A stretch of 64,000 nucleotides of DNA from Solwaraspora sp. WMMD406 (GTDB lineage Bacteria; Actinomycetota; Actinomycetes; Mycobacteriales; Micromonosporaceae), in contig NZ_JARUBF010000001.1 of the NCBI RefSeq assembly GCF_029626025.1, positions 2,666,001-2,730,000 of the forward strand, written 5' to 3'. Below, in pieces: positions 45,187 to 62,551 of this stretch. Made by a program: the position numbers and the translations under genes. How positions within the stretch are numbered: the stretch's first letter is position 1; every line of letters begins with the position of its first letter. Below the pieces are notes generated by a model. That model saw only the letters and a program-made list of their open reading frames with translations, ran no database searches and was not told where the DNA came from.

Positions 45187-45241
45187 CCGGGCGATCCGAC
45201 CAGTTGGCCAGCGGCCAGCCGGTGAGCGAAGGAGTAGGACT

Positions 45242-46321: not shown

Positions 46322-46456
46322 CCTGGTTGGCCTGACCCGGCCGGGTAAGGCCACCCTGATCGCACCACGCACGCACCACGGTGACCGTCGACTGTGACGG
46401 CCGCCGGGATCCGCACACCCCGATAACCCCTTCACCTTCCGATCCAGGAGGTCGTC

Positions 46457-47542: not shown

Positions 47543-47562
47543 TCCTCACGGGGAGGCTTACC

Positions 47563-48783
47563 TTGTCCGCTCAACACAACGAACTGCGGGTCGGCATGAT
47601 CGGCTACGCGTTCATGGGTGCCGCGCATTCCCAGGCCTGGCGCACCGTGAACCGCGTCTACGACCTGCCGTCGCGGGTCCGGATGGCCGCGGTGTGCGGC
47701 CGAGACGAGGCGCAGGTGGCGCAAGCCGCCGACCGGCTCGGCTGGGAGTCGCACACCACGGACTGGCGCGCGCTGGTCGCCCGGGACGACATCGACGTGA
47801 TCGACATCTGCACCCCGGGCGACAGCCACGCCGAGATCGCGATCGCGGCGCTGGCCGCCGGCAAGCACGTACTGTGCGAAAAGCCGTTGGCCAACACCGT
47901 GGCCGAGGCCGAACAGATGACCGCGGCCGCGGAGTCGGCCCGGGCCAGCGGGGTCCGGTCGATGTGCGGGTTCAACTACCGGCGGGTGCCGGCGGTGACG
48001 CTGATGCGTCAGCTCGTCGACGCCGGCCGGATCGGAACCATCCGCCACATCCGCGCCGTGTACCTGCAGGACTGGATCGTCGACCCGGAGTTCCCGCTGG
48101 TCTGGCGGTTGCAGAAGGACAAGGCGGGTTCTGGGTCGCTCGGTGACATCGGCGCGCACATCATCGACGCCACTCAGTACGTCACCGGTCAGCGGATCAC
48201 CACGGTGAGCGGGCTTACCGAGACGTTCGTCACGCACCGACCGTTGCCGGCCGGCTCCAGCGGTCTGACCGCCGCGGCCGGTGGCGGCGGTGCCGACGGC
48301 GGCGAGCCGGCCACCGGCGAGGTCACCGTCGACGACGCCGCGCTGTTCATGGCCCGGCTCGACGGCGGCGCGATCGCCAACTACGAGGCGACGCGGTTCG
48401 CCACCGGACGCAAGAACGGGCTGCGGATCGAGATCAACGGCTCGCTCGGGTCGGTCGCGTTCGACTTCGAGCGGATGAACGAGCTGGAGTTCTACGACGC
48501 CACCCGGCCCGGCGTCGAGCAGGGCTTCAGCCGGATCATCGTCACCGAACCCGACCATCCGTACCTGTCGGCCTGGTGGCCGCCCGGTCACGGCATCGGG
48601 TACGAGCACTCGTTCACCCACGAGGTCCGTGACTTCGTCGAAGCGGTGGCGACCGGAATCGACCCCACACCGTCGTTCGCCGACGCGTTGCAGGTCCAAC
48701 GGGTGCTGGACGCGGTCGAACGCTCGGCCGGTGTGGGGCAGTGGACCACCGTGGAATCGGCTCTCACCACGGACCAGGTCTGA
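47563..48783 (+). CDS. Gfo/Idh/MocA-family sugar oxidoreductase
   Basis: 406 residues. Rossmann start VGMIGYAFMGAAHSQAW, the NAD-binding DVIDICTPGDSHAEIAIAALAAGKHVLCEKPLANT with EKP lysine, and substrate domain GFNYRRVPAV, GSGSLGDIGAHIIDATQYVTG. It oxidises a sugar or cyclitol hydroxyl with NAD(P). It starts from TTG 47563 with GGGAGG 8 bases ahead, an uncommon start; no ATG is near. Immediately follows the binding protein, so it probably processes the imported compound. Two hairpins after its stop end the operon. Confidence 0.92.
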   Translation: MSAQHNELRVGMIGYAFMGAAHSQAWRTVNRVYDLPSRVRMAAVCGRDEAQVAQAADRLGWESHTTDWRALVARDDIDVIDICTPGDSHAEIAIAALAAGKHVLCEKPLANTVAEAEQMTAAAESARASGVRSMCGFNYRRVPAVTLMRQLVDAGRIGTIRHIRAVYLQDWIVDPEFPLVWRLQKDKAGSGSLGDIGAHIIDATQYVTGQRITTVSGLTETFVTHRPLPAGSSGLTAAAGGGGADGGEPATGEVTVDDAALFMARLDGGAIANYEATRFATGRKNGLRIEINGSLGSVAFDFERMNELEFYDATRPGVEQGFSRIIVTEPDHPYLSAWWPPGHGIGYEHSFTHEVRDFVEAVATGIDPTPSFADALQVQRVLDAVERSAGVGQWTTVESALTTDQV

Positions 48784-48911: not shown

Positions 48912-49050
48912 CCAGTACGGCGTAAGCACAACCTTGGCGGCTGTGGCACCGCGCCAGGGGTGAGGCACCAACCGCAACTGTCCGTACCCAACGGACTCAG
49001 TGCCCACGGTGAGGCTTCGCGGCCTTCCCGAACCCCCGGAGGAACGACTG

Positions 49051-52000
49051 ATGACAAGAACCGCCCGGCGATGGCTCGCCATCGCCGCGGGCGCGACACT
49101 CGTCACGCCCATGATCGCCACCGCGCCAGTGGCCGCCCACCCCGGACACGACCACGACGAGAGCTACCAGGTGCTGGTGTTCACCCGCACCGAGGGAGTG
49201 GCCCACCCGTCGACGGCCAAGGCCGTCAACGCCATCCGCACCCTCGGCAACAACAACGGATTCACCATCGACGTCTCCCGTAACGGCACCGTGTTCACCC
49301 CGGAGAACCTGGCCAACTACAGCGCCGTGGTCTTCCTGAACAACACCGGTGACGTGCTCAACGACGTCCAGCAGGAGGCCTTCGAGGACTACGTCCAGGC
49401 CGGCGGCGGCTACCTCGGCGTACACGCCGCCGTCGACGCGGAGCCGGACTGGGCGTTCTACCGCGACCTGGTCGGCACCACCTCGACCGGCACCACCGCC
49501 AGCGGTGCCGGCGTGATCGACGTCGCGGACCGCTACCACCCGTCGACCAGCACCATCTCCCGCGAGCTGACCATCGACGAAAACTACCTGAACTTCACCG
49601 AGAACGTTCGGGGCATCCAGCACGTGCTCGCCACCGTGGACACCGACACGATCAGCGGCAGCAGCATGGGCTACGACCACCCGGTCTCCTGGTGTCAGGA
49701 CTACCAGGGCGGCCGGTCCTGGTACACCGGTCTCGGTTCGTCCCCGGACACCTTCACCGTCGGTGCCGTCCGCAAGCACCTGCTCGGCGGCATCCAGTGG
49801 GCCGCCGGCGCGGCCGAAGGCGACTGCGGTGCGACCGTCGAATCCAACTACGAGCGGGTCGTCCTCAACGACCAGCCCGGTGAGCCGATGAGCCTCGCTG
49901 TGCTGCCCGACGGCCGGGTGCTGCACAACACCCGCGCCGGCGAGATCCGCCTCTACGACCCGGCCTCCGGCGCCAGCCCGGTGATTACCAGCGTGCCGGT
50001 CTACCAGCACGACGAGGACGGCCTGCAGTCGGTCACCCTCGACCCGAACTTCGCCGAGAACAAGTGGGTCTACCTCTACTACGCGCCGCCGCTGGACACC
50101 CCGGTCGACGACCCGGCCACGCCGGGCGTCAACGAGGGTGACGCGCCGGCCAACAGTGACGACCCGAGCGTGTGGGAGGCCTTCAAGGGCTACAACCTGC
50201 TGTCGCGGGTCAAGTTCGTCGAAGAGCCCACGCCGCACCTGGACCTGTCGACCGAGCAGGAAATCCTCAAGGTCGACACCGACCGGGGTGCCTGCTGCCA
50301 CGTCGCCGGCGAGGTCAAGTTCGACGGCAAGGGTCTGCTCTACCTGGTCACCGGCGACGACACCAACGCCAGCGGCTCGGACGGCTACACGCCGATCAAC
50401 CGGTCGCTGACCCGCGGTCCGGCGTACGACGCCGCCCGGTCCTCGGCCAACACCAACGACCTGCGTGGCAAGCTGCTGCGGATCAAGCTGAAAGAAGATG
50501 GCAGCTACAGCATCCCGGCCGGCAACCTGTTCCCCGAATCGCAGGACCTCGACGACCAGACCCGCCCGGAGATCTTCCTGATGGGTCTGCGCAACCCGTT
50601 CCGCTTCGACGTTGACGAGCGCGGCTTCGTCTACATCGGTGACTACTCGCCGGACTCGCGTAACCCGAGTGCCACCCGTGGCCCGGAGGGCACCGGCCGA
50701 TGGTTCGCCACCAACAAGGCGGGCAACTACGGCTGGCCGTACTGCTACTCGCCGACCCTGCCGTACATCGACTACGACTTCACCACCCAGACGTCGGGCG
50801 AGCCGTTCAACTGCGCGGCCCCGATCAACGACTCCCCCCGCAACACCGGCCGTAGCCTGCTGCCGCCGGTCGAGCAGCCACAGTTCTGGTACACCTTCAA
50901 CGCGACCACGACCTGTCGGGACAGCTACCTGGTCGACCCGGCCGGCACCTGCGACTTCCAGTGGCCGGCGATCGGCACCGGTGGCGTCGGCCCGATGGGC
51001 GGCCCGATCTACAAGTTCGACGAGTCGCTGGAGTCGGACTACAAGCTGCCGGAGTATTACCACGACGCCGTGTTCTTCGGCGAGTTCAGCCGGGACCGGA
51101 TGTTCACCATGCGGACCAACGGCAGTGGCAAGTTCTTCGGCGTCGAGCGGTTCCTGCCCAGCACGTTCGTCTTCGACAACCCGATGGACATGGAGATCGG
51201 CCCGGACGGCACCCTGTACGTGCTGGACTACGGTGACGGCTTCTTCCGGGCCAACCCGGACGCGTCGCTTTACCAGATCCGCTACGTCAAGGGCACCCGT
51301 GGCCCGGTCGCCGAACTCGCCGCGTCTCCGACGTCCGGCCAGGCCCCGCTGACCGTGCAGTTCTCCAGCGAGGGCTCGCGTACTCCGGAGGTCGGCGCGA
51401 CCATCAGCATCGCCTGGGACTTCGACGGAGACGGCACCACCGACTCCACCGACCCGGACGCGTCGTACACCTACACCAGCAACGGCGTGTACTACGCCCA
51501 GCTGACGGTGACCGACTCCAACGGCAAGCAGGCGACGTTGAGCCGCACCATCACGGTCGGCAACACCGCGCCGACGGTCGAGGTCGCCACCCCGCTGTCC
51601 GGTTCCTTCTTCAACTGGGGCGACACGGTGCCGTACACGGTCACCGTGACCGACCCCGAAGACGGCACCATCGACTGCGACCGGGTGGAGGTCACCTTCG
51701 TGCTCGGCCACGACGAGCACGGACACCCGCAGACCACCACCACCGGCTGCACCGGCAACCTGCCGACCCCGGCCGACGGTGCCGACCACGCGGGTAGCTA
51801 CCTGTTCGGCGGTATCAGCGCCAGCTACACCGACCTGGGCGGCGGCGGACAGCCGGCGCTGACCACGGTCGGCCAGGCCACCATCCAGCTCTACCAGCAG
51901 CAGGCCGAGTTCGCCCAGGTCAAGCAGGGCGTGTCGGTATCCAACACCTCCGACACCGGTGGCGGTCAGCACGTCTCCGGGATCACCAACGGCGGCTACA

Positions 52001-52308
52001 TCGCGTTCGACCCGATCAACCTGGGCGGGATCGACACGGTGACGCTGCGCCACGCCGGTGGCTCGTCGTCGACCGTGGGCAACCCACGGGCGGTCGTCGA
52101 ACTGCGGGCCGACGCGCCGGACGGACCGCTGGTGGCCAGCACCACGCTCGCCGCCACCGCCGGCTCCAGCGCCTGGACCAGCACCGACGTGGCGGTCGAC
52201 CACCCGGCCGGGACACACCAGCTCTACCTGGTGTTCCGCTCGGTCGAGGGTGGACCAACCTCCAACATGTTCAACCTCAACTGGGTGCAGTTCGGTCCCG
52301 CGAGCTGA
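49051..52308 (+). CDS. Secreted ThuA / PQQ-type sugar dehydrogenase / PKD / CBM multidomain protein
   Basis: 1085 residues. Sec signal (RRWLAIAAGATLVTPMIATAPVAA); ThuA-like domain about 35-250 (VLVFTRTEGVAHPSTAKAVNAIRTLG, GGGYLGVHAAVDAEPDW, WCQDYQGGRSWYTGLG); beta-propeller sugar dehydrogenase about 265-740 (SLAVLPDGRVLHNTRAGEIRLYDP, GEVKFDGKGLLYLVTGDD, MGLRNPFRFDVDERGFVYIGDYS); PKD domain about 760-840 (SIAWDFDGDGTTDSTDPDASYTYTSNGVYYAQLTV); an extra beta domain, then a CBM6-like C-terminus (GGYIAFDPINLGGIDTVTLRHAGG). It probably binds polysaccharide and oxidises or remodels sugars extracellularly. ThuA proteins take part in 3-keto-sugar metabolism. ATG 49051 has GGAGGAACG. Confidence 0.9.
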   Translation: MTRTARRWLAIAAGATLVTPMIATAPVAAHPGHDHDESYQVLVFTRTEGVAHPSTAKAVNAIRTLGNNNGFTIDVSRNGTVFTPENLANYSAVVFLNNTGDVLNDVQQEAFEDYVQAGGGYLGVHAAVDAEPDWAFYRDLVGTTSTGTTASGAGVIDVADRYHPSTSTISRELTIDENYLNFTENVRGIQHVLATVDTDTISGSSMGYDHPVSWCQDYQGGRSWYTGLGSSPDTFTVGAVRKHLLGGIQWAAGAAEGDCGATVESNYERVVLNDQPGEPMSLAVLPDGRVLHNTRAGEIRLYDPASGASPVITSVPVYQHDEDGLQSVTLDPNFAENKWVYLYYAPPLDTPVDDPATPGVNEGDAPANSDDPSVWEAFKGYNLLSRVKFVEEPTPHLDLSTEQEILKVDTDRGACCHVAGEVKFDGKGLLYLVTGDDTNASGSDGYTPINRSLTRGPAYDAARSSANTNDLRGKLLRIKLKEDGSYSIPAGNLFPESQDLDDQTRPEIFLMGLRNPFRFDVDERGFVYIGDYSPDSRNPSATRGPEGTGRWFATNKAGNYGWPYCYSPTLPYIDYDFTTQTSGEPFNCAAPINDSPRNTGRSLLPPVEQPQFWYTFNATTTCRDSYLVDPAGTCDFQWPAIGTGGVGPMGGPIYKFDESLESDYKLPEYYHDAVFFGEFSRDRMFTMRTNGSGKFFGVERFLPSTFVFDNPMDMEIGPDGTLYVLDYGDGFFRANPDASLYQIRYVKGTRGPVAELAASPTSGQAPLTVQFSSEGSRTPEVGATISIAWDFDGDGTTDSTDPDASYTYTSNGVYYAQLTVTDSNGKQATLSRTITVGNTAPTVEVATPLSGSFFNWGDTVPYTVTVTDPEDGTIDCDRVEVTFVLGHDEHGHPQTTTTGCTGNLPTPADGADHAGSYLFGGISASYTDLGGGGQPALTTVGQATIQLYQQQAEFAQVKQGVSVSNTSDTGGGQHVSGITNGGYIAFDPINLGGIDTVTLRHAGGSSSTVGNPRAVVELRADAPDGPLVASTTLAATAGSSAWTSTDVAVDHPAGTHQLYLVFRSVEGGPTSNMFNLNWVQFGPAS

Positions 52309-52314
52309 CCCGAC

Positions 52315-52347
52315 CCGGTGCCGGTGACCGCTGGTCACCGGCACCGG
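52315..52347 (+). terminator. 15-bp perfect hairpin after the ThuA gene
   Basis: CCGGTGCCGGTGACC (52315-52329), loop GCT, complement 52333-52347; six bases after the stop. Probable terminator. Confidence 0.75.
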
Positions 52348-52366
52348 AAGCAGCAATCCGGTAACG

Positions 52367-52395
52367 CCGGGGGCGGGCGCACCACCCGCCCCCGG
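52367..52395 (+). terminator. 11-bp hairpin
   Basis: CCGGGGGCGGG and CCCGCCCCCGG pair perfectly across a 7-base loop, 20 bases downstream of the previous hairpin. Confidence 0.65.
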
Positions 52396-52601
52396 TCAGG
52401 AAGGAAGAAAACAACGCGGGGGAGGCAGGGCCAGTACGCCGAACGTCCCTGCCTGCCACAGCCCCGTCCGTCCGGTCGACCGGGCCCGGCGACGGCATCG
52501 TTGACGCCGACTTCGGCGCCGTCGGCGGTGGTGCCACCCTGGCGCGCCCGGGTGGACGGGGCCCTTCAACACCACATCAGTTGTCGGAAGGTAGGCACGA
52601 C

Positions 52602-53822
52602 ATGCGTACGGGAATCTGGCTCATCGGAGCCCGTGGTTCGGTCGCGGTCACCAGCATCACCGGTGCGCTGGCGCTGCGTGCCAGCCTGGCCGAGGCCACC
52701 GGTTGCGTGACCGAACTTCCCGAACTGCGCGGACCGGCCCTACCTGGCTTCTCCGACCTGGTCTTCGGTGGCCACGACATCGCGACCACGCCGCTGGTCA
52801 AGAAGGCCGACGCGCTCGCGTCGGCCGGGGTCGTGCCCGGCCGGCTCGTCGCCGCCCTGCACGACGACCTCGCCGGCGTCGAGGCGGAGATCCGTCCGCT
52901 GCCAACGGCCGCCACCCAGGCCGAGACAGCCGCGGCGATCGCGGCGGACCTGACCGCCTTCCGCGACCGGCACGCCTTGCGGCGGGTGGTGGTGGTCAAC
53001 GTCTCCACCACCGAACCGGCACCGCCACCGCATCCGGCACACCAGAGCCTCGCCGCGCTCACCGCCGCGCTGGCCGGCCCGGAACCGGTCCTGCCACCCA
53101 GCGCACTGGTCGCGTACGCGGCACTCGGCGCCGGACACGCGTACATCGACTTCACCCCGTCGACCGGCGCCCGGCTACCGGCGCTCGACGAGTTGGCCCG
53201 CCGTGAGCGGGCGCCGTACGCCGGCCACGACGGCAAGACCGGGGAGACGCTTGTCAAGGCGGTACTGGCACCGATGTTCGCGCTGCGCAACCTGCGGGTC
53301 CGCAGCTGGTCGGGCACCAATCTGCTGGGTGGGGGCGACGGCGCCAACCTGGCCGAACCAGCGGCGAACGCGGCCAAGGCGGCCAGCAAACAGCGGGTCC
53401 TCGCCGAGACGCTCGGCTACCAGCCGCAGGGGCACACCCGCATCGAGTACGTCGACGACATCGGCGACTTCAAGACGGCCTGGGATCTGATCACCTTCTC
53501 GGGGTTCCTCGGCACCGGCATGCGGATGGAGTTCACCTGGCACGGCTGCGATTCGGCGTTGGCCGCGCCGCTGGTGCTCGACCTCGCCCGGCTCACCGCC
53601 GCCGCGCAGCACTCCGGTCGCAGCGGCCCGCTGCCCGAACTCGCCTTCTTCTTCAAGGATTCGCTCGGCACCGGGTCGCACTCCCTGTCCGATCAGTGGC
53701 GTGTGCTGGTCGAATTCACCCACGGACTCCACGCCCGGTACGAGTCCGGCGGCGCGGGAGGGTCCTCGGCCGGATCGGGCATCCCGGGGGAGTCCTTGGC
53801 CGAGCCGGGCAGGGCCGCGTGA
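52602..53822 (+). CDS. ino1: Inositol-3-phosphate-synthase-like cyclase, first gene of the ebo operon
   Basis: 406 residues. NAD-binding start GIWLIGARGSVAVTSITGAL, the ANCHOR segment SWSGTNLLGGGDGANLAEPAANAAKAASK, then EYVDDIGDFKTAWDLITFSGFLGTGMRMEFTWHGCDSALAAPLVLDLARL and FFFKDSLG: the catalytic lysines of inositol-phosphate synthase are kept. The family cyclises glucose-6-phosphate to inositol-1/3-phosphate using internal NAD redox. The last 40 residues are Gly/Ser/Ala-rich and variable. It replaces the EboD cyclase of classical ebo operons. Its substrate and product here are untested. ATG 52602 has GGAAGG 11 bases upstream. Confidence 0.85.
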   Translation: MRTGIWLIGARGSVAVTSITGALALRASLAEATGCVTELPELRGPALPGFSDLVFGGHDIATTPLVKKADALASAGVVPGRLVAALHDDLAGVEAEIRPLPTAATQAETAAAIAADLTAFRDRHALRRVVVVNVSTTEPAPPPHPAHQSLAALTAALAGPEPVLPPSALVAYAALGAGHAYIDFTPSTGARLPALDELARRERAPYAGHDGKTGETLVKAVLAPMFALRNLRVRSWSGTNLLGGGDGANLAEPAANAAKAASKQRVLAETLGYQPQGHTRIEYVDDIGDFKTAWDLITFSGFLGTGMRMEFTWHGCDSALAAPLVLDLARLTAAAQHSGRSGPLPELAFFFKDSLGTGSHSLSDQWRVLVEFTHGLHARYESGGAGGSSAGSGIPGESLAEPGRAA

Positions 53823-54835
53823 TGCCCGGCCGATCGCCGAGGCGCGGGAACTGGCGAGCCCGGCTCGGCGACGTGGCACAGCTGGTACGGGCACCGGCGG
53901 CGCTGTCCGTACCCGGTGACGTGGTCGCCGGAGCCGCCGCCAGCGGTGGGCTCGGGCCGCGTACCGTCGGACTGGCCGGCGCGTCCGTCTGCCTGTACTG
54001 GGCCGGGATGGCCGCCAACGACTGGGCCGACCAGGACCTGGACGCCGTCGAGCGGCCGGAGCGCCCGATCCCGTCCGGCCGGATCAGCTCCTCGGCGGCG
54101 TTCGCCGTCGCCGCCGGGCTCACCACCGCCAGCCTGGCCTTGGCCGCCGCGACCGGCGGCCGTCGCGCGCTGGCGGTCGCCGTACCGCTGACCACCGCGG
54201 TGTGGACCTACGATCTGTGGGCCAAGAACACCGCCGCCGGGCCGGCCGTGATGGCCACCTGTCGTGGCCTGGACGTGCTGCTCGGCGCGACCGCGACCGG
54301 CCGACTGCGGTCCGCCGTACCGGCGGCGCTCGCCGTGGCCGCCCACACGTACACCGTCACCGAGCTGTCGCGCAGCGAGGTCAGCGGCGCCGACCGACGG
54401 CTGCCGGTGGCGACCCTCGCCGGTACGGCCGCGATCGCACTGGCGGCCGCCGCCCCTGCCGGGTCCGGCGGCACGGATCGCGTCGCCGCCAGGAACGGCG
54501 GCACGCACGCCAGGAACGGCGGCACGGACTCCGACGCTGCGGCCGTGGGCACTGGTCGGACCGGCCGCCGGTGGCGTGCGGTCGCCGCCGCCGGGCTCGC
54601 CGTCTGGTACGCCGCCCGGTACGGCGCCGCCCAGGCCAAGGTGTACCGCGACCCCGGGCCCGGTCCGGTGCGCGCCGCCGTCGGTGCCGGGATCGTCGGC
54701 CTGCCCGCCCTGCAGGGCGCCCTCACCGCCCGGTCCGGGGCCACCCCCGCCGGCGTGGCCACCGCCGTCGGGCTGGCCGTCTCCGCCGCCGCGCCGCTCG
54801 GCCGCCGGCTTGCCCGCAAGGTGTCCCCGACATGA
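53822..54835 (+). CDS. eboC: UbiA-family prenyltransferase EboC
   Basis: 337 residues, eight helices. The first aspartate motif is NDWADQDLDAVERPERPIPSGRIS (N-D-x-x-D-x-x-x-D); the second is reduced to WTYDLWAKNTAAGPAVMATCRGLDVLLGA. It should attach a polyprenyl group to a small hydroxylated acceptor within the membrane. ATG 53822 overlaps the preceding stop by one base (TGATG), so translation is coupled. A Gly/Thr/Ala-rich cytoplasmic loop between helices 6 and 7 contains repeated RNGGT units. It acts with the cyclase before it and the polyprenyl synthase at the operon end. Confidence 0.9.
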   Translation: MPGRSPRRGNWRARLGDVAQLVRAPAALSVPGDVVAGAAASGGLGPRTVGLAGASVCLYWAGMAANDWADQDLDAVERPERPIPSGRISSSAAFAVAAGLTTASLALAAATGGRRALAVAVPLTTAVWTYDLWAKNTAAGPAVMATCRGLDVLLGATATGRLRSAVPAALAVAAHTYTVTELSRSEVSGADRRLPVATLAGTAAIALAAAAPAGSGGTDRVAARNGGTHARNGGTDSDAAAVGTGRTGRRWRAVAAAGLAVWYAARYGAAQAKVYRDPGPGPVRAAVGAGIVGLPALQGALTARSGATPAGVATAVGLAVSAAAPLGRRLARKVSPT

Positions 54836-55758
54836 GTACCGGCACCGCCGGCCGGGCTCCCGGGCTGCGGTACGGATACGGTACGAACGGCTTCGCCAAC
54901 CATCGGCTGGCCGACGCGCTGCGGGTGCTGGTCGACCTGGGCTACCAGGGTGTGGCGCTCACCCTGGACCACGACCATCTCGACCCGTACGCCGCCGGCC
55001 TGCCGCGCAAGGTGGCCCGGATCGCCGACCAGTTGCGCGATCTCGGCCTCGCCGTGGTCGTCGAAACCGGTGCGCGTTACCTGCTCGACCCGTGGCACAA
55101 GCACGCCCCGACGTTGCTGCACGACGACGCCGAACGCCGGATCGACTTCCTGACCCGGGCCGTGGCAATCGGCGCGGACCTGGGTGCCGAGGCGGTGTCG
55201 TTCTGGTCCGGGGTGTGCCCCGACGGCATCGACGAGGCGACCGCGTGGGACCGGCTCGTCGCGGGCTGCGCCCGGGTGGTGGACGCGGCGGCCGCCGCCG
55301 GCGTCACCCTCGGCTTCGAACCGGAGCCCGGCATGCTGGTCGCCGACATCGCCGACTGGTGGCGGCTGCGGGCCGCGCTCGGCGCGCCGAGCCTGTTCGG
55401 CATCACCCTCGACATCGGCCACTGTCGGTGTCTGGAGCCGAAGTCGGTCCCCGACTGCGTGACCGAGGTCGCCGCGCACCTGGTCAACGTGCAGATCGAC
55501 GACATGCGGCGGGGGGTGCACGAGCACCTCGAATTTGGCACCGGCGAGATCGACTTTCCGCCGGTGCTGGCCGCGCTGCGGGCCGCCGGTTACCCGGGGC
55601 TGGTCGCGGTGGAACTGCCCCGGCACTCGCACGCGGCTCCGGCGATTGCCGCCCGATCCATCGATTTTCTCCGTACCGCCGAACGTGTCGCCGCTACGCC
55701 GGCCGGGCGTCCGATCGCGCCGACCGGTGCCGACGTACCAGAGGGAGGCCAGTCGTGA
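54832..55758 (+). CDS. TIM-barrel sugar phosphate isomerase/epimerase-like protein of the ebo operon
   Basis: 308 residues of the AP-endonuclease-2 fold: YGYGTNGFANHRLADALRVLVDLGYQGVALTLDHDHLDPY, then metal-type ligands in GFEPEPGM (E), LDIGHCRCL (D/H), VNVQIDDMRRGVHEHLEFGTGEIDFPPVL (H/E) and VAVELPRHSH (E). It should isomerise or epimerise the sugar or cyclitol precursor. It is a different protein from EboE further on. ATG 54832 overlaps the EboC stop by ATGA. Not in every described ebo operon; exact reaction unknown. Confidence 0.88.
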   Translation: MSTGTAGRAPGLRYGYGTNGFANHRLADALRVLVDLGYQGVALTLDHDHLDPYAAGLPRKVARIADQLRDLGLAVVVETGARYLLDPWHKHAPTLLHDDAERRIDFLTRAVAIGADLGAEAVSFWSGVCPDGIDEATAWDRLVAGCARVVDAAAAAGVTLGFEPEPGMLVADIADWWRLRAALGAPSLFGITLDIGHCRCLEPKSVPDCVTEVAAHLVNVQIDDMRRGVHEHLEFGTGEIDFPPVLAALRAAGYPGLVAVELPRHSHAAPAIAARSIDFLRTAERVAATPAGRPIAPTGADVPEGGQS

Positions 55759-56462
55759 ACCTGCCCGTCCCGTCCGACTCCGACCACCCGGACCCGTCCC
55801 CCGTCATCGATCAGCTGGTGGCGGCCCTGCGTGCCCGATCCGATCGCGGCGCGTCCGCTCTGGACTGGCTGGCTGACGCCCGCGCCCGGGTGCGCGCCGA
55901 CCCGGAGGCGTTGCCGGCGCTGTTCGCCGCCGTCGGCCGCCGGTGTGGCCGCACCGACCTGCCGGACCTTCCCGGCTGGACCGCCGACGAGGCCGCCCGG
56001 ACCCTGCTGCTGCTGGACCTCAGCTCGGCGACCAGTGGACAGGACGACCTCGCCGACCGGATCGCCGACTGCTACGACCACGGCGACGGTGCCGAGCGAC
56101 GGGCGGTGCTCAAGGCGCTGCCACTGCTGCCGGTCGGCGACCGCGCGGTCCCGCTGCTGCACGACGCGATCCGTACCAACGACACCCGGCTCCTGTCCGC
56201 CGCGCTCGGCCGCTATGCCCGGCACCTGGACCAGCCGATGTGGCGGCAGGCGGTGCTCAAGTGCGTGTTCACCGGGGTGCCGCTGTCCGCCGTACACGAT
56301 CTCGACGCCCGGGCCGACGACGAGCTGCGGATCATGCTGGCCGGGTTGTCCGACGAGCGCACCGCTGCGGGTCGGACCCTGCCGGCGGACGCGGTGGCGC
56401 TGCTGGACCGGCTTCGGGCCGCCGCTGATTCGTCGCACCACGTGCTCAGACAGGAGGGATGA
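55755..56462 (+). CDS. eboA: EboA-domain protein
   Basis: 235 residues, all-helical, matching the EboA domain: RTLLLLDLSSATSGQDDLADRIADCYDHGDGAERRAVLKALPLLPVGDRAVPLLHDAIRTNDTRLLSAALGRYARHLDQPMWRQAVLKCVFTGVPLSAVHDLDARADDELRIMLAGLSDERTAAGRTLPADA. EboA is the hallmark of ebo clusters but has no known activity; it may be a scaffold or an atypical enzyme. The N-terminal 45 residues are unconserved and Pro/Asp-rich. GTG 55755 overlaps the preceding stop by GTGA, tying it to the operon. Confidence 0.93.
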   Translation: MNLPVPSDSDHPDPSPVIDQLVAALRARSDRGASALDWLADARARVRADPEALPALFAAVGRRCGRTDLPDLPGWTADEAARTLLLLDLSSATSGQDDLADRIADCYDHGDGAERRAVLKALPLLPVGDRAVPLLHDAIRTNDTRLLSAALGRYARHLDQPMWRQAVLKCVFTGVPLSAVHDLDARADDELRIMLAGLSDERTAAGRTLPADAVALLDRLRAAADSSHHVLRQEG

Positions 56463-57314
56463 ATGCGCATCTTCGATCCGCACATCCACATGACCTCGCG
56501 GACCACCGACGACTACCAGGCAATGGCCGACGCCGGGGTGCGTGCCCTGGTCGAACCGGCGTTCTGGCTCGGTCAACCGCGCACCAACGTCGGATCGTTC
56601 GTCGACTACTTCGATTCGCTGCTCGGCTGGGAACCGTACCGGGCGAGCCAGTTCGGCATCCGCCACCACGCCACGATCGCCCTGAACCCGAAAGAGGCCA
56701 ACGACCCGCGCTGCGTCGGCGTGCTCGACGTGCTACCCCGTTACCTGGCCAAGGATGGCGTGGTCGCGGTGGGGGAAATCGGCTACGACTCGATGACCCC
56801 GGCCGAGGACGAGGCGTTCGCCGCCCAGCTGGCGTTGGCCCGCGAGTACGAGCTCCCCGCCTTGGTGCACACCCCGCACCGGGACAAGGCGCGGGGCACC
56901 GAACGGACCCTGGCGGTGGTCGCCGAGTCCGGCGTCGAACCGGGCCACGTCGTGGTCGACCACCTCAACGAGGTGACGGTCGGCCTGGTCAAGGAGTCCG
57001 GCTGCTGGATGGGCTTCTCCATCTACCCGGAGACCAAGATGTCGCCGCCGCGCATGGTCGAGATCCTCAAGCAGTACGGTCCCGAGCGGATCCTGGTCAA
57101 CTCGGCGGCCGACTGGGGCCGCTCCGACCCGCTGCTCACCCGCACCACCGGGGAGGCGATGCTCGCCGCCGGCTTCAGCGACGACGACGTCGAACGGGTG
57201 CTGTGGCGCAATCCGGTGGAGTTCTACGGCCAGTCCGGGCGGCTGGACCTCAGCGATCTGGACGCCCCCGCGCCGACGTTCGAGGGCAGTTCGATCATGC
57301 GCGGCGGTGGCTGA
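56463..57314 (+). CDS. eboB: TatD-like metal-dependent hydrolase EboB
   Basis: 283 residues: metal-site start FDPHIHMTSRTTDDYQ (HxH), then ALVEPAFWLGQPRTNVGSFVDYF, GEIGYDSM (Glu), VHTPHRDK (His), VVDHLNEVTV (His) and NSAADWGRSDPL (Asp). TatD-family proteins are phosphodiesterases/deoxyribonucleases, but EboB homologs are thought to be small-molecule hydrolases. The ATG directly follows the EboA stop (TGAATG) with AGGAGGG in front, so it is coupled. Cytoplasmic; function in prenylated-cyclitol synthesis unknown. Confidence 0.93.
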   Translation: MRIFDPHIHMTSRTTDDYQAMADAGVRALVEPAFWLGQPRTNVGSFVDYFDSLLGWEPYRASQFGIRHHATIALNPKEANDPRCVGVLDVLPRYLAKDGVVAVGEIGYDSMTPAEDEAFAAQLALAREYELPALVHTPHRDKARGTERTLAVVAESGVEPGHVVVDHLNEVTVGLVKESGCWMGFSIYPETKMSPPRMVEILKQYGPERILVNSAADWGRSDPLLTRTTGEAMLAAGFSDDDVERVLWRNPVEFYGQSGRLDLSDLDAPAPTFEGSSIMRGGG

Positions 57315-58513
57315 TGCGCCTGTCCGACCAGCGGCGGTGCACCGTCCATCTCAGCTACTGCACCAACGTGCACCCGGCCGAGGACCTCGCCGGGGTGCTG
57401 GACCAGCTCGACACGTACGCCGTGCCGGTGCGGGACCGGCTCGACGCCGACCCGCTCGGCCTGGGCCTGTGGCTGGCCGCGCCGGCCGCCGCCGCGCTCG
57501 CTGCCGACCCGGCCGCCCGTCGCCGGCTGCGGGCCGCGCTCACCGACCGGGGCCTGGAAGTGGTCACTCTCAACGGGTTCCCGTACGAGGCGTTCCAGGC
57601 ACCGGTGGTCAAACACGCCGTCTACCACCCGGACTGGGCCGACCCGCGCCGGCTCGACTACACCCTGGCGCTGGCCGGTATCCTCGCCGACCTGCTGCCC
57701 GACGACGCCCAGCGCGGCTCCATCTCCACCCTGCCGCTGGCTTGGCGCGAGCCGTGGGACACCGACCGGGCCGACGCCTGCGCGCGGATGCTGGACCGGC
57801 TCGCCGCCGGGCTGGCCGACGTCGAACGCGACACCGGCCGAACCATCCGGGTCGGCTTCGAACCCGAACCGGGTTGCGTCGTGGAGACCACCGCCCAGGC
57901 CGCCGAACAGCTGGCCGACGTCGACACCGAACGGCTCGGCGTCTGCGTCGACCTGGCCCACCTGGCCTGCGCGTGGGAGGAGCCGGTCGCCGCGCTCGGC
58001 CGGCTGCGGGCCGCCGGCCTACCGGTGGTCAAGGTCCAGGTGTCGGCCGCGCTGGAGGTCACCGACCCGGTCCGGGACCGGTCCGCGATCGCCGGGTATG
58101 TCGAACCACGGTTCCTGCACCAGACCCGGTCGGACACCGGCGGGGCGACCGACGACCTTGACGCGGCCCTCGGCTCCGGGTTGCCCGGCCCGTGGCGGGT
58201 GCACTACCACATACCGCTGCACGCCGCGCCGGTCGCGCCGCTGGCCGCGACGATGCCGCACCTCCGGGACGGCCTCGCCGCGGTCGTCGACGGCACCGAC
58301 TGTGACCACTTCGACGTGGAGACCTACACCTGGGGGGTACTGCCGGCAGACGTTCGCCCGACCGGGCCGGCGCAGCTCGCCGCCGGGATCGCCGCCGAGC
58401 TGGCCCAGGCCCGCGACGAACTGATCGCGCTGGGCCTGAGCACCACCACCCGTACCGCCACCACCCGTACCACCGCCACCCGTACCGCCGCCGGATCGGA
58501 GGCCGCCGCATGA
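57314..58513 (+). CDS. eboE: EboE, xylose-isomerase-like TIM-barrel protein
   Basis: 399 residues: CTVHLSYCTNVHPAEDLAGVLDQLDTYAVPVRDRLDADPLGLGLWLAAPAA, LEVVTLNGFPYEAFQAPVVKHAVYHPDWADPRRLDYTLALAGILADLL, GFEPEPGCVVETT, VDLAHLACAWEEPV, HYHIPLHAAPVAPLAAT and DHFDVETYTW. It is the EboE signature protein, a metal-dependent isomerase-like enzyme with two glutamates and histidines placed for metal binding. The C-terminus is low-complexity with Arg-Thr repeats. ATG 57314 overlaps the preceding stop by one base. Distinct from the other TIM barrel at 54832. Confidence 0.93.
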   Translation: MRLSDQRRCTVHLSYCTNVHPAEDLAGVLDQLDTYAVPVRDRLDADPLGLGLWLAAPAAAALAADPAARRRLRAALTDRGLEVVTLNGFPYEAFQAPVVKHAVYHPDWADPRRLDYTLALAGILADLLPDDAQRGSISTLPLAWREPWDTDRADACARMLDRLAAGLADVERDTGRTIRVGFEPEPGCVVETTAQAAEQLADVDTERLGVCVDLAHLACAWEEPVAALGRLRAAGLPVVKVQVSAALEVTDPVRDRSAIAGYVEPRFLHQTRSDTGGATDDLDAALGSGLPGPWRVHYHIPLHAAPVAPLAATMPHLRDGLAAVVDGTDCDHFDVETYTWGVLPADVRPTGPAQLAAGIAAELAQARDELIALGLSTTTRTATTRTTATRTAAGSEAAA

Positions 58514-59925
58514 ATCCGCTGCTCGTGCTCGACGTGGTCGGGCTGACCCCCCGGCTGCTGCGCCACATGCCCCGGCTGGCGGCGCTGGCCGACACCGGAT
58601 TCCAGGCCGAACTCGGCACCGTGCTGCCGGCGGTGACCTGCTCGGTGCAGTCGACGTTCCTCACCGGCGAGACGCCGGCCGGGCACGGCATCGTCGGCAA
58701 CGGCTGGTACTTCCGGGACCTCGGCGAGGTGTTCCTGTGGCGTCAGCACAACGCGCTGGTCGGCGGCGAGAAGCTGTGGCACACGGCCCGCCGGCTTCGC
58801 CCCGACTACACGGTGGCGAACGTCTGCTGGTGGTACGCGATGGGTGCCGACGTCAACTGGACGGTGACCCCCCGGCCGATCTACCACGCCGACGGACGCA
58901 AGGACCCGGACTGCTACACCGACCCGCCGCAGCTGCACGACCAGTTGACCAACCGGCTCGGCACGTTCCCGCTGTTCAACTACTGGGGGGCGGGGGCGGG
59001 GCTGGTGTCGTCGGAGTGGATCGCGAAGGCCACGAGGCAGATCATGACCGACCACTCGCCGGACCTGACCCTGGCGTACCTGCCGCATCTCGACTACGAC
59101 CTGCAACGCTACGGCGGCGACGGTCCGCACGCGCGGCGGGCGGCGGCCGAACTCGACGCGGTGCTGGCCCCGCTGCTGGACGCGGCGGCGGCGCGCGGCA
59201 CGACCGTGGTGGCGTTGTCCGAGTACGGCATCACCGACGTGTCGCAGCCGGTGCACGTCAACCGGCTGCTGCGGGCCGAAGGGCTGCTGCGGGTCTACAC
59301 CCAGGCCGGCATGGAGTACCTCGACCCGTGGACCTCGCGGGCGTTCGCCGTCGCCGACCATCAGATCGCCCACGTGTACGTGCGGGATCCGGCCGACGTG
59401 CCGGCGGTGGCCGCGCTCTGCGCCGAGCTGCCCGGGGTGGCCGAGGTCCTCGACGCGGACGGCAAGGCGGCGGCCGGGTTGGATCATCCGCGCTCCGGTG
59501 AGCTGGTGCTGGTCGCCGAGCCGCAGGCCTGGTTCACCTACTACTACTGGCGCGACGACGCGGCGGCACCGGACTTCGCCCGGCTGGTGGAGATCCACCG
59601 TAAACCCGGCTACGACCCGGCGGAGCTGCTGTTCGACCCGGCGAATCCGGGCGCGGCGAAGGCCCGGGCGGCGATCGCCCTGGCCCGCAAGAAGGTCGGC
59701 CTGCGCTACACGATGAACGTGGTCGGGCTGGACGCCGGCGCGCGAGCGGTCCGTGGCTCGCACGGCCGGCTGCCGGCGGATCCCGCTGACGGCCCGGTGC
59801 TGCTCTGCTCGTCCCTGGCGGCGGCCCGGGACCGTGTCGCCGCCACCGAGGTCAAGTCGTTGCTGCTGGAACTGGCCGGCCTCGGCGACGCGGCGCGCGC
59901 CCCGGTGGGGGAGGTGACCCGGTGA
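58510..59925 (+). CDS. eboF: EboF, nucleotide-pyrophosphatase/alkaline-phosphatase-superfamily protein
   Basis: 471 residues of the alkaline phosphatase superfamily: LVLDVVGLTPRLLRHMPRLAALADTGFQAELGTVLPAVTCSVQSTFLTGETPAGHGIVGNGW, with D8 as metal ligand and the catalytic Thr in AVTCSVQ. The late site reads LAYLPHLDYDLQRYG and VVALSEYGITDV, where usual NPPs have a SDHG; the metal Asp-His is changed to Glu-Tyr. So substrate or metal use may differ. It might remove phosphate or pyrophosphate in prenylated-cyclitol synthesis. ATG 58510 overlaps the EboE stop by ATGA. Confidence 0.9.
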   Translation: MNPLLVLDVVGLTPRLLRHMPRLAALADTGFQAELGTVLPAVTCSVQSTFLTGETPAGHGIVGNGWYFRDLGEVFLWRQHNALVGGEKLWHTARRLRPDYTVANVCWWYAMGADVNWTVTPRPIYHADGRKDPDCYTDPPQLHDQLTNRLGTFPLFNYWGAGAGLVSSEWIAKATRQIMTDHSPDLTLAYLPHLDYDLQRYGGDGPHARRAAAELDAVLAPLLDAAAARGTTVVALSEYGITDVSQPVHVNRLLRAEGLLRVYTQAGMEYLDPWTSRAFAVADHQIAHVYVRDPADVPAVAALCAELPGVAEVLDADGKAAAGLDHPRSGELVLVAEPQAWFTYYYWRDDAAAPDFARLVEIHRKPGYDPAELLFDPANPGAAKARAAIALARKKVGLRYTMNVVGLDAGARAVRGSHGRLPADPADGPVLLCSSLAAARDRVAATEVKSLLLELAGLGDAARAPVGEVTR

Positions 59926-61007
59926 CCGTGGCACCGGCCCGGCCCGGCGCACCCGGATCCGGCACCGGTGAATCCCTGCGGAGCCGCTGCGACGCCGAAC
60001 TGGCCGCCTTCCTCGACCGGCAGGATCCGCACTGGCCGGACGGGGCGCCGCGCGGGGTGTACGACACGCTGCGCCGATTCGTGCTGGCCGGGGGGAAACG
60101 GATGCGGCCGGTCTTCTGCTATTGGGGTTGGCGTGGCGCGGGTGGGGCCGACTGCCACGAGATCGTCGCCGCCGCGGCGGCGTTGGAGATATTCCACGCG
60201 TTCGCGCTGATCCACGACGACATCATGGACGGCAGTGACCGACGCCGGGGCGAGCCGTCGGTGCACCGGATCTTCGCCGACCTGCACACCCGGTCCGCCT
60301 GGCGCGGCGACGCCGGCCGGTACGGGCACAGCGCCGCGCTGCTCTGCGGGGATCTCTGCGCGGCCTGGGCGGATCAGATGTTCCACGAGTGCGGGCTGGC
60401 GCCGGAGCGGATCCGGCGCGGCTACGCGGTCTTCGCCAACATGCGGACGGAGGTGATCGCCGGGCAGTACCTCGACCTGGTTTCCGGCGTCGGTGACGGT
60501 TCGGTGGCCAGTGCGCTGACGGTAATCCGGATGAAAGCCGCCAGATACACGGTTACCCGACCATTGCAGATCGGTGCGGCCCTGGCTGGGGCTGGACCTG
60601 AGCTGCTGGCCGCGTACGCTGCCTTCGGTGATCCACTGGGTGACGCCTTCCAGCTCCGGGACGACGTGCTCGGGGTGTTCGGCGATCCGGCGGTCACCGG
60701 TAAGTCGGTGCTCGATGATCTGCGAGAGGGCAAGTCGACGGTGATGATGGCGCTGGCCCGCAACATGGCGGACCGTGGCCAGGCGGCCCGGCTGCGCGAG
60801 TTGTTCGGCAACCCGCAGTTGGACGCCGCTGGCGCCGAGGAGCTGCGGACGATCATCGTCGACACCGGCGCGCGCGAGTCGATCGAGCAGATGATCCGGA
60901 TTCGTACCCAGGAAGCGGTCACCGTTCTCGTCGATGCGTCGTTGACCCCCGAGACGCGTACGGAATTGACCGCCCTGGCTGAATCGGTGGCCGAGCGGCA
61001 GCGCTGA
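59922..61007 (+). CDS. Polyprenyl diphosphate synthase (trans) of the ebo operon
   Basis: 361 residues. First aspartate-rich motif LIHDDIMDGSDRRRGEPSVH (DDxxD), second region FQLRDDVLGVFGD where DDxxD is DDVLG, and ..GGKRMRPVFCYWGW as the typical lead-in. It condenses IPP with allylic diphosphates to a trans-prenyl chain, of C15 to C40 length not assignable. It would feed EboC with prenyl donor. GTG 59922 overlaps the EboF stop by GTGA, so it belongs to the operon. Canonical ebo operons do not all include such a gene. Confidence 0.92.
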   Translation: MTVAPARPGAPGSGTGESLRSRCDAELAAFLDRQDPHWPDGAPRGVYDTLRRFVLAGGKRMRPVFCYWGWRGAGGADCHEIVAAAAALEIFHAFALIHDDIMDGSDRRRGEPSVHRIFADLHTRSAWRGDAGRYGHSAALLCGDLCAAWADQMFHECGLAPERIRRGYAVFANMRTEVIAGQYLDLVSGVGDGSVASALTVIRMKAARYTVTRPLQIGAALAGAGPELLAAYAAFGDPLGDAFQLRDDVLGVFGDPAVTGKSVLDDLREGKSTVMMALARNMADRGQAARLRELFGNPQLDAAGAEELRTIIVDTGARESIEQMIRIRTQEAVTVLVDASLTPETRTELTALAESVAERQR

Positions 61008-61031
61008 ACCGCAGACCCCCAAGGAGGCATC

Positions 61032-62429
61032 GTGGCCATACCCCACCAGGTGACTGGAGATTCGCACCATGTCGACCGGCGTCCCGCCGGTGGCGACGCG
61101 GGGTATCGGCCGCTGCGGGTCGCCATGATCGGGCAGAAGGGGATGCCCGCCACCTACGGTGGGATCGAACGGCACGTCGAGGAACTGGCAAGCCGGTTGG
61201 TCGCCCGGGGGCACGAGGTCACCGTCTACTGCCGGCCCAGCTACGGCTCGGTGCCAATGGACCGCTACCGGGGCGTACGGCTGCGTCAGGTGCGGACCGT
61301 GGCCAGCAAGCACCTCGACGCGATCGTGCACTCCACCACCTCCACCATGGCCGCCATGCGGGAACGGCCCGACATCGTGCACTACCACGGTCTCGGGCCC
61401 GGTCTGGTCGCCCCGCTGCCGCGCTACCTGGCCCGCAGCAAGGTCGTACTCACCGTGCACGGCCTGGACCACCAGCGGGCCAAATGGAGCCGGATGGCCC
61501 GGACCGTGCTCGGCGCCGCGCACCTGTTCAGCGGCCACGTCCCGAACGCCCGGGTCGCGGTCTCCCGCGCCCTGGCCAACCACTACGAGACCCGCTTCGG
61601 CAGCCCGGCGAGCTACATCCCCAACGGAGTCAGCGCCCCCCGGCAGGTTCCGGCCCGGCACATCGGTCCCCGCTTCGGGCTGACCCCCGGCGGCTATCTG
61701 CTGATGGTCGGCCGACTCGTCCCGGAGAAGTCCGCCGATCTGCTGGTCCGCGCGTTCCGCCAGGTCGACACCGATCTGCGGCTGGCGATCGTCGGTGGCT
61801 CGTCGTTCAGCGACGAGTTCGTCGCCCGGGTCCGCGCCGAAGCGGTCGACGACCCACGGATCGTGTTCACCGGGTTCGCCTACGGCGACCAGCTCGCCGA
61901 ACTGTATTCGCACGCGGCTGCCTTCGTGCAGCCGTCCCGACTGGAAGGGCTGCCGCTGACCCTGCTGGAGGCCGCCTCGTACGGCCTGCCGGTCGTGGCC
62001 AGCGACATCACCCCCCACGTGGAGGTGCTGACCGCCGACGCTCCGGGTCGCCGGCTGTTCGCCGACGGCGACCTCGACGATCTGGTCCGCGCCCTGCGGC
62101 AGGTGGTCGCCGACCCCGACGGCGAACGGGCCGGAGCGCGCGGACTGCGCGACCGGGTCGCCACCGAATACACCTGGGACGCCGCGGCCCGGGAACTGGA
62201 GGCGCTCTACCTGGATCTGCTCGCGCCCCGCCGTCCGCAGCCGGAACGCCCCCGTCCGCAGCTGATCCGCCCTCGTCGGCTGCGATCTGACTCGGCCGTC
62301 GGCGCCGACGCCGGCCGTCCCACCGGCTCCACCGGCTCCACCGGCTCCACCGGCTCCACCGATTCCACTGTTCTCACCGACGCCCCCGGACCTGCCGACG
62401 AGCGGGCCCGGACGGAGCCGGACGGCTGA
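61032..62429 (+). CDS. GT4-family glycosyltransferase
   Basis: 465 residues. GT-B fold: VAMIGQKGMPATYGGIERHVEELASRLVARGHEVTVYCRP, KVVLTVHGLDHQRAKWSRM, PNGVSAPRQ, LMVGRLVPEKSADLLVRAFRQVD, FVQPSRLEGLPLTLLEAASYGLPVVASDITPHVEVL with the E-x7-E pair typical of GT4. It transfers a sugar from a nucleotide donor to a lipid or saccharide. GTG 61032 has AAGGAGG ten bases upstream and follows the polyprenyl synthase by 24 bases. The C-terminus carries a (GST)4 repeat. Confidence 0.9.
   Translation: MAIPHQVTGDSHHVDRRPAGGDAGYRPLRVAMIGQKGMPATYGGIERHVEELASRLVARGHEVTVYCRPSYGSVPMDRYRGVRLRQVRTVASKHLDAIVHSTTSTMAAMRERPDIVHYHGLGPGLVAPLPRYLARSKVVLTVHGLDHQRAKWSRMARTVLGAAHLFSGHVPNARVAVSRALANHYETRFGSPASYIPNGVSAPRQVPARHIGPRFGLTPGGYLLMVGRLVPEKSADLLVRAFRQVDTDLRLAIVGGSSFSDEFVARVRAEAVDDPRIVFTGFAYGDQLAELYSHAAAFVQPSRLEGLPLTLLEAASYGLPVVASDITPHVEVLTADAPGRRLFADGDLDDLVRALRQVVADPDGERAGARGLRDRVATEYTWDAAARELEALYLDLLAPRRPQPERPRPQLIRPRRLRSDSAVGADAGRPTGSTGSTGSTGSTDSTVLTDAPGPADERARTEPDG
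62326..62360 (+). repeat. 9-bp coding repeat in the glycosyltransferase C-terminus
   Basis: GGCTCCACC repeats four times, encoding Gly-Ser-Thr units in a disordered tail; expansion would stay in frame. Confidence 0.9.
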
Positions 62430-62551
62430 TGCGCATGGCCGGCGGGTCGGCAGATACTGCCTGATCAGGGACCCGGCTGAGAGCGTAGATTGGGCCGTCC
62501 GCACCGGTGGACGCCAACAGCAGGTGGAGCGAGACAGCGGATCGGCGTGCG

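What the first reader, a model, noticed from the sequence alone, without database searches (positions are those of the whole stretch)
52602..61007. Ebo-type operon with an inositol-phosphate-synthase-like cyclase instead of EboD
EboA, EboB, EboC, EboE and EboF are all present in one strand and order, yet the dehydroquinate-synthase-like EboD known from classical ebo operons (as recalled from cyanobacterial and algal clusters) is missing. An inositol-3-phosphate-synthase-like enzyme stands as first gene instead. Both enzyme classes form carbocycles from a sugar phosphate, so this could be an analogous replacement giving a different cyclitol head. With a UbiA prenyltransferase the inferred product is a prenylated, inositol-like cyclitol. 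This is the best candidate for an undescribed system in the window.
Basis: partly seen in the sequence, partly recalled or inferred. Interest (0 to 1): 0.93.

Follow-up and report, generated by a model that had tools for sequence, protein, structure and literature searches.

The report
Inositol-synthase version of ebo operon
A soil actinobacterium carries a known but unexplained set of pathway genes in which the usual ring-making enzyme is replaced by an inositol-phosphate-synthase relative; the same arrangement recurs in other bacteria and, in reduced form, in salt-loving archaea, so the unknown product may be an inositol-like molecule with a prenyl tail.

Summary
Window 52602-61007 is one tightly coupled operon: inositol-phosphate synthase (IPS), UbiA prenyltransferase, a PF01261 TIM-barrel, EboA, EboB, EboE, EboF and a prenyl-diphosphate synthase, without EboD. 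It is a conserved variant: of 396 Actinomycetota genomes, 18 carry EboE over cut-off; 17 of these carry this IPS clade beside it, and the 18th has EboD. EboD was found in 1 of 396 genomes and in 0 of 150 of the family. Similar clusters occur in Rokubacteria, Gemmatimonadota and, without EboA, in haloarchaea, Nitrospira and Deltaproteobacteria. IPS keeps the catalytic lysines and phosphate loop of A. fulgidus mIPS, so an inositol phosphate is its likeliest product. An EboB tree rejects one EboD-type clade (p-AU 4e-12): cyclases were exchanged on a shared chassis. Against strict need for IPS: 6 of 60 fetched loci have ebo genes but no IPS nearby without being cut at a contig end. Substrate, acceptor and product are inferred. 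No description turned up in my open-access searches, though SCO3242/SCO3243 of S. coelicolor are listed as CDA genes. New variant of a known kind.

The parts
52602..53822 (+). IPS-like cyclase (archaeal-type inositol-phosphate synthase), first gene of the operon
   Evidence: PF07994 4e-43, PF01658 8.5e-31; TIGR03450 mycothiol INO1 only 17.5 bits against cut-off 638; predicted fold nearest to A. fulgidus mIPS; K259, K263, K291, K352 invariant in 35 aligned proteins
53819..54835 (+). UbiA-family prenyltransferase, SCO3242 family (EboC counterpart)
   Evidence: NF045897 362 bits, cut-off 260; NF035940 (EboC) 129.5, cut-off 250; PF01040; NDxxDxxxD motif kept
54832..55758 (+). Companion TIM-barrel (xylose-isomerase-like, PF01261)
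   Evidence: PF01261 1.1e-36; nearest solved structures are ketose/ribulose 3-epimerases, E about 1e-8; fused to EboA in 8 of 51 loci as flagged by script
55755..56462 (+). EboA
   Evidence: NF035938 157.7 bits, cut-off 50; confident all-helical model, pLDDT 93.6, no PDB match at E <= 0.001
56463..57314 (+). EboB, TatD-like metal-dependent hydrolase
   Evidence: PF01026 6.5e-13; 3guw (A. fulgidus AF_1765) 2.9e-28
57314..58513 (+). EboE, TIM-barrel protein
   Evidence: NF035939 412.7 bits, cut-off 250
58510..59925 (+). EboF, phosphodiesterase/nucleotide-pyrophosphatase family
   Evidence: PF01663 2.2e-63
59922..61007 (+). Short-chain prenyl-diphosphate synthase; found in part of the family's loci, in few loci outside it
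   Evidence: PF00348 6.6e-48; NF042416 325.6 bits, below its cut-off of 600; presence per locus
61032..62429 (+). GT4 glycosyltransferase, flanking; of the survey loci matched only in the six same-genus ones
   Evidence: PF00534 3.1e-27
49000..52308 (+). Upstream neighbour: ThuA-GSDH-PKD-CBM6 protein; a ThuA/GSDH gene lies within 5 kb upstream of IPS in 21 of 42 complete survey loci
   Evidence: PF06283, PF07995, PF18911, PF03422; count
45116..48783 (+). Upstream neighbours: ABC permease, periplasmic binding protein, Gfo/Idh oxidoreductase; Gfo/Idh within 5 kb upstream of IPS in 10 of 42 complete survey loci
   Evidence: PF02653, PF13407, PF01408; count

Best explanation
An ebo-type pathway whose ring is made by a dedicated archaeal-type inositol-phosphate synthase instead of EboD. 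Shown: gene content, conservation, mutual exclusion with EboD in the samples, MIPS fold and catalytic residues. Inferred: IPS turns glucose-6-phosphate into an inositol phosphate (NAD-dependent oxidation, aldol closure, reduction); EboF removes or hydrolyses a phosphate; the companion TIM-barrel and EboE isomerise or epimerise the ring; the membrane UbiA protein joins it to a prenyl chain supplied by the adjacent prenyl-diphosphate synthase; EboB is a metal-dependent hydrolase at an unknown step; EboA is a helical adaptor. The product would be a prenylated inositol-like lipid made or used at the membrane.
For: 17 of 18 EboE-positive genomes among 396 have IPS at 500 bits or more next to EboE, and 0 of the other 378 reach 500 bits (7 of the 17 contributed a row to the profile). 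EboD profile: 1 of 396, 0 of 150. Same seven-gene order in 42 of 60 loci. A separate INO1, close to the mycobacterial enzyme (1gr0, 1e-176), lies 2 Mb away, so the operon copy is not the housekeeping one. Four lysines invariant in 35 of 35 rows, aligned with those of A. fulgidus mIPS; GxDGKTGETL loop shared with it. Model nearest to 1u1i/3qw2, TM 0.86-0.90. EboB tree rejects an EboD-type clade, p-AU 4e-12. EboC, IPS and TIM are consecutive on one strand in Gemmatirosa, whose EboB, EboE and EboF group with EboD-type rows. IPS and the TIM-barrel also occur together in a non-ebo Roseomonas cluster.
Against: Six of 60 loci have ebo genes, no IPS in the fetched stretch and are not cut at a contig end (L032, L049, L071, L078, L080, L081); two such genomes, G563 and G615, have no match to the IPS profile at E <= 1e-8. 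No substrate or product was tested. With Aureibacter included, the EboC tree does not put all EboD-type EboC together (best tree 2 changes; monophyly not rejected, p-AU 0.093), so EboC following the cyclase is unproven. ThuA/GSDH and ABC-Gfo/Idh neighbours hint at carbohydrate processing. The one biochemical study of an EboC homologue reports farnesylation of aromatic quinoline substrates (PMC9235831, passages). The IPS clade also occurs outside ebo contexts.
Confidence: 0.5

Rival explanations
1. IPS is the ring former but does not make inositol phosphate: it uses another sugar phosphate (as Ari2 makes a five-membered cyclitol) or releases a keto-cyclitol that the companion TIM-barrel reworks.
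For: Ari2 (6k96, five-membered-cyclitol-phosphate synthase) is a member of the same fold family. EboD is thought to use a C7 sugar phosphate (PMC5133447, passage). The TIM-barrel resembles ketose epimerases and accompanies IPS also outside ebo.
Against: IPS is nearest to mIPS of A. fulgidus (E 3e-66), far from Ari2 (E 8e-10), and keeps the lysines and the GxDGKTGETL loop.
Confidence: 0.2
2. The operon belongs to carbohydrate or keto-sugar processing together with the upstream ThuA-GSDH protein, sugar ABC transporter and Gfo/Idh; any prenylated molecule is a carrier, not the end product.
For: ThuA/GSDH or Gfo/Idh within 5 kb upstream of IPS in 25 of 42 complete survey loci and 9 of 19 complete genome-contig loci; a ThuA or GSDH-like gene also near the haloarchaeal clusters; solo EboE-like genes follow the same ABC-Gfo/Idh set in L070 and L089.
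Against: 17 of 42 complete survey loci show neither neighbour within 5 kb upstream, although some had little upstream sequence. A UbiA enzyme and a prenyl synthase are unexpected in a purely catabolic operon (recalled family knowledge).
Confidence: 0.15
3. The IPS merely supplies the general inositol pool (mycothiol, phosphatidylinositol) and is next to ebo genes by chance or co-regulation.
For: Fold and catalytic residues are those of ordinary MIPS.
Against: The genome has its own INO1 2 Mb away; IPS of this clade at 500 bits or more is absent from the 378 sample genomes without EboE over cut-off; the order is kept in 42 of 60 loci.
Confidence: 0.07

Closest known systems
Classical ebo/EDB operon (eboA-F; PMC5133447, PMC6282210, passages)
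   Same: EboA, EboB, EboE and EboF families, a UbiA-family prenyltransferase, clustering on one strand; a ring-forming enzyme acting on a sugar phosphate
   Different: EboD absent; IPS plus an extra TIM-barrel present; UbiA is below the EboC model cut-off and in NCBI's SCO3242 family
Archaeal-type myo-inositol-1-phosphate synthase (A. fulgidus Ino1, 1u1i)
   Same: Fold, four lysines, GxDGKTGETL loop, 36-37% identity in the structural match
   Different: Sits in an ebo operon in a genome with a separate INO1; activity untested
Ari2, five-membered-cyclitol-phosphate synthase of aristeromycin (6k96)
   Same: MIPS homologue recruited to specialised metabolism (PMC11348189, passages)
   Different: Distant (E 8e-10 by sequence, 3e-17 by fold); no ebo genes known to me there
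BE-40644 pathway (EEVS plus UbiA)
   Same: A sugar-phosphate-derived ring is prenylated by a UbiA-superfamily enzyme, as told in PMC5133447 (passage)
   Different: The cyclase there is of the DHQS-like superfamily; product known there, unknown here
S. coelicolor SCO3242/SCO3243, listed in the CDA cluster
   Same: Names and annotation (putative transferase; myo-inositol phosphate synthase) fit the first two genes here (PMC3610822, passages); SCO3242 is the namesake of NF045897 (inferred from the name)
   Different: The S. coelicolor record was not examined here

Membership tests
ebo operon (eboA-F) | EboA, EboB, EboE, EboF families clustered on one strand | tested here: met
ebo operon (eboA-F) | EboD (DHQS-like sugar phosphate cyclase) | tested here: not met
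   No PF01761 in the operon; EboD profile silent in this genome (4 and 12 of 34 first-look candidates were scored)
ebo operon (eboA-F) | EboC by the NCBI model NF035940 | tested here: not met
   129.5 bits, cut-off 250
SCO3242-family prenyltransferase (NF045897) | Score over the curated cut-off | tested here: met
   362 bits, cut-off 260
myo-inositol-phosphate synthase | PF07994 and PF01658 over cut-off; the four catalytic lysines | tested here: met
   role of such lysines from PMC11348189 passages
myo-inositol-phosphate synthase | Conversion of glucose-6-phosphate to inositol phosphate | not testable with these tools
   needs an enzyme assay
mycothiol-type INO1 (TIGR03450) | Score over the curated cut-off | tested here: not met
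   17.5 bits, cut-off 638
sugar phosphate cyclase superfamily (DHQS/EEVS/EboD) | PF01761 in the operon cyclase | tested here: not met
   no match

The most novel reading that the evidence does not exclude
IPS-type ebo is an old, cross-domain pathway (Actinomycetota, Rokubacteria, Gemmatimonadota, Nitrospirota, Deltaproteobacteria/Myxococcota, haloarchaea) that makes a prenylated inositol-type lipid; an IPS + TIM-barrel + matching UbiA module has been exchanged for EboD on a shared EboB/EboF chassis, so that one core pathway builds different cyclitol heads in different lineages.
Probability: 0.35. Interest if true: 0.85.

Novelty: new variant of a known kind. Interest (0 to 1): 0.62.

Why it matters
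What the ebo genes make is an open question, although they matter for scytonemin precursor export and for resistance of a Pseudomonas to nematode grazing (PMC6282210, passages) and sit in some algal plastids (PMC5133447). A sister pathway whose first enzyme belongs to a family with a well-studied reaction gives a concrete guess at the head group, and it is frequent in Streptomyces, where genetics is routine. If right, it would add a kind of prenylated cyclitol lipid shared by bacteria and archaea and show a pathway swapping its ring-forming module.

Tried and rejected
EboD elsewhere in the genome: not found (PF01761 hits are an AroB-like gene and a frame with two such domains, each over 1 Mb away). 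IPS as mycothiol INO1: rejected. EboC as a strict marker of cyclase type: left open because of Aureibacter. EboA fold: no PDB match at E <= 0.001. Promoter/terminator scan of 52200-62700: 0 and 0 found. ThuA counts in 20 genomes are not used: I chose the genomes by hand, many after seeing ThuA in their loci; one search is used instead. Literature searches: open-licence PMC only; searches returned no paper. I first mis-assigned the A. fulgidus lysines and corrected this from their spacing and the mutant entries K278A and K367A; the numbers K274 and K306 are recalled.

Rows and choices: the 60 survey loci were hand-picked. IPS was checked in fetched loci and in the genomes, not in all 99 family or 84 genus genomes with EboE. 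The IPS profile A1 (12 rows) contains sequences from 7 of the 17 genomes that it found at 500 bits or more; the EboD profile A2 (3 rows) contains G399's own EboD. One search scored at most 4 first-look candidates a genome, one search likewise; one search came back empty, but the same query had matched G399. IPS tree: 115 rows, hand-picked survey loci plus all of L116-L128 and L130-L209. EboB/C/E/F trees: hand-picked subsets; L213 was left out and put back. In extracted genes the frame was cut at its first stop.
Full report
WHAT IS THERE. Window 52602-61007 holds eight genes on the + strand with gaps of -4, -4, -4, 0, -1, -4 and -4 nt: IPS, UbiA, a PF01261 TIM-barrel, EboA, EboB, EboE, EboF and a prenyl-diphosphate synthase. 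A GT4 gene starts 24 nt later; among the survey loci it was matched only in the six of the same genus. Upstream lie a ThuA-GSDH-PKD-CBM6 protein and an ABC permease, binding protein and Gfo/Idh. The genome has 7.16 Mb in 3 contigs. Its family is most likely Micromonosporaceae: contig G536:C44 of a same-family genome has the same length, 475,790 bases, as a Catellatospora tritici contig.

IS EBOD REALLY MISSING? PF01761 matches three places in the genome, all over 1 Mb from the operon: one AroB-like gene and two domains in one long frame. An EboD profile of three ebo-linked sequences matched 1 of 396 phylum-sample genomes and 0 of 150 family genomes. The one genome, G399, is the EboE-positive genome without this IPS; its locus reads EboD-EboB-EboE-EboC-EboF. 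G399's EboD is one of the three profile rows; the other two are from Deinococcus and Ketogulonicigenium.

IS THE IPS LINK REAL? EboE is over cut-off in 18 of 396 phylum-sample genomes, 99 of 150 family genomes and 84 of 121 genomes of genus g20 (Streptomyces by its neighbours in the tree, an inference). In the same 396 genomes the IPS profile reaches 500 bits in exactly 17, all of them EboE-positive, and in all 17 IPS lies in the same fetched locus as EboE. Seven of the 17 contributed a row to that profile; ten did not. A further genome, G297, has only EboE fragments below cut-off, with a more distant IPS (425.8 bits) on another contig. Of 60 hand-picked loci, 42 have the full order on one strand, 6 have EboE alone, 4 have EboC-TIM-EboA-EboB-EboE-EboF, and 8 are otherwise partial, cut at a contig end or EboD-type. 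In named plasmid records the picture repeats: of 47 with EboE, 29 have the IPS, 15 have EboD at 48% identity or more and 3 Streptomyces records have neither; none of the 15 is among the 40 listed of 44 IPS records. NCBI's own names for the operon can be read in Streptomyces camelliae.

BEYOND ACTINOMYCETOTA. A scan of named genomes kept the best 80 of 578 relatives. Of these 80 loci, 19 hold all seven genes, 18 from Actinomycetota and one from a Rokubacterium, L193. Six more hold at least two of EboB/C/E/F without a detected EboA: L130 (Gemmatimonadota), L137 (Proteobacteria), L146 (Deltaproteobacteria/Myxococcota), L154 and L196 (haloarchaea) and L185 (Nitrospira). Plasmids add Halocatena, Natronococcus and Gemmatirosa. 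In the haloarchaeal, Nitrospira and proteobacterial clusters a second TIM-barrel stands in place of a recognisable EboE. Most planctomycete IPS loci show no Ebo neighbour; three (L144, L152, L181) show TIM and EboC. So the IPS clade at large is not ebo-specific.

HOW THE PIECES EVOLVED. In the IPS tree 44 actinobacterial rows form one group (SH-aLRT 96): 38 with EboA-type context, 3 partial and 3 without ebo context; the Rokubacterium joins at 90. In the EboB tree EboD-type rows do not form a clade (p-AU 4e-12): Gemmatimonadota with IPS group with Deinococcus and G399, which have EboD (100/100). EboE also puts Gemmatirosa with the nine EboD-type rows (100/100; EboD-type monophyly p-AU 0.042). 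In Gemmatirosa EboB, EboF, EboC, IPS and TIM run on one strand and EboE on the other. EboC unites 8 EboD-type rows at 100/100 when Aureibacter is left out; with it the best tree needs two changes and one clade is not rejected (p-AU 0.093), and Aureibacter's EboC shares sequence features with IPS-type EboC. Whether EboC follows the cyclase is therefore open; it matters because UbiA enzymes are reported to cluster by acceptor (PMC9385802, passages).

CHEMISTRY. IPS is nearest to A. fulgidus mIPS by sequence (E 3e-66), by profile (2e-117) and by predicted fold (model pLDDT 91.9; TM 0.86-0.90). Its four catalytic lysines are invariant in 35 of 35 aligned proteins; PMC11348189 (passages) describes four such lysines coordinating glucose-6-phosphate. 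The TIM-barrel resembles ketose epimerases, is flagged as fused to EboA in 8 of 51 loci (in one, L071, the extracted frame held an internal stop), a fusion type also noted in PMC5133447 (passage), and occurs with IPS in a non-ebo Roseomonas cluster. The UbiA protein keeps the first Asp-rich motif; the stretch aligned with the later one reads LSRSE, without the aspartates described for DGGGP synthase (the correspondence of the stretches is my reading). All steps after IPS are inference.

WHAT SPEAKS AGAINST. Six of 60 loci have ebo genes but no IPS in the fetched stretch and are not cut at a contig end: L032, L071, L078, L081, L080 and the degenerate L049. G147, G651 and G611 have an IPS elsewhere, beside another ebo copy in the first two; G563 and G615 have no match to the IPS profile at E <= 1e-8. 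Such operons may draw on the general inositol pool; in L032 and L078 a gene that I read as inositol-monophosphatase-like lies nearby (no family search made). Recurrent ThuA/GSDH or Gfo/Idh neighbours (25 of 42 complete survey loci, 9 of 19 others) leave room for a carbohydrate-processing role. The one biochemical study of an EboC homologue found farnesylation of aromatic quinolines (PMC9235831, passages).

PRINT STATUS. The word 'inositol' does not occur in the main texts of PMC5133447, PMC6282210, PMC9235831 and PMC6092422 (passages read, and for the first also part 1 of one section). Searches, which joined ebo, UbiA or prenyltransferase terms with inositol terms, returned no paper. PMC5133447 notes an ebo operon without eboD in Leeuwenhoekiella and missing eboD in two Planctomycetes, without naming a substitute. 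PMC3610822 lists SCO3242 and SCO3243 as CDA genes. Subscription journals and preprints were not searchable, so an earlier description cannot be excluded.

Noticed in passing
L002/L003 (own genome, C1:3780103-3781545): Two PF01761 sugar-phosphate-cyclase domains in one 1026-aa frame, with a kinase-like ORF nearby: looks like a separate C7-cyclitol cluster (naming from reading the sequence).
   Followed up: no
L096:7977-17080 (Roseomonas haemaphysalidis plasmid NZ_CP061179.1): IPS (37% identity) and TIM-barrel (49%) occur together in a non-ebo cluster with YcaO, MBL-fold, Gfo/Idh, methyltransferase, GT4 and PIG-L genes.
   Followed up: partly
L200 (Micromonospora tulbaghiae); L203 (M. marina): IPS of this clade without ebo genes; in L200 it lies beside a condensation-domain, a DegT-family, an MFS and an AMP-binding gene. 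L203 groups with it in the tree.
   Followed up: partly
L070 and L089: EboE-like genes without other ebo genes directly after an ABC permease-binding protein-Gfo/Idh set 72-82% identical to that upstream of the window operon.
   Followed up: partly
L032, L071, L078, L081 (Streptomyces-like genomes): Operons EboC-TIM-EboA-EboB-EboE-EboF without IPS; L032, L078 and L081 lie beside a phytoene-desaturase-like gene and a gamma-glutamyltransferase-like gene (read from sequence).
   Followed up: partly
L212, L213, L216: A 'ferritin-like protein' gene beside EboD-type ebo genes in Mycetohabitans, Aureibacter and Gloeothece.
   Followed up: no
L091:2254-3456: A 'ScyD/ScyE family protein' lies directly upstream of the IPS-ebo operon in Streptomyces camelliae; ebo clusters are associated with the scytonemin operon in cyanobacteria (PMC6282210).
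   Followed up: no
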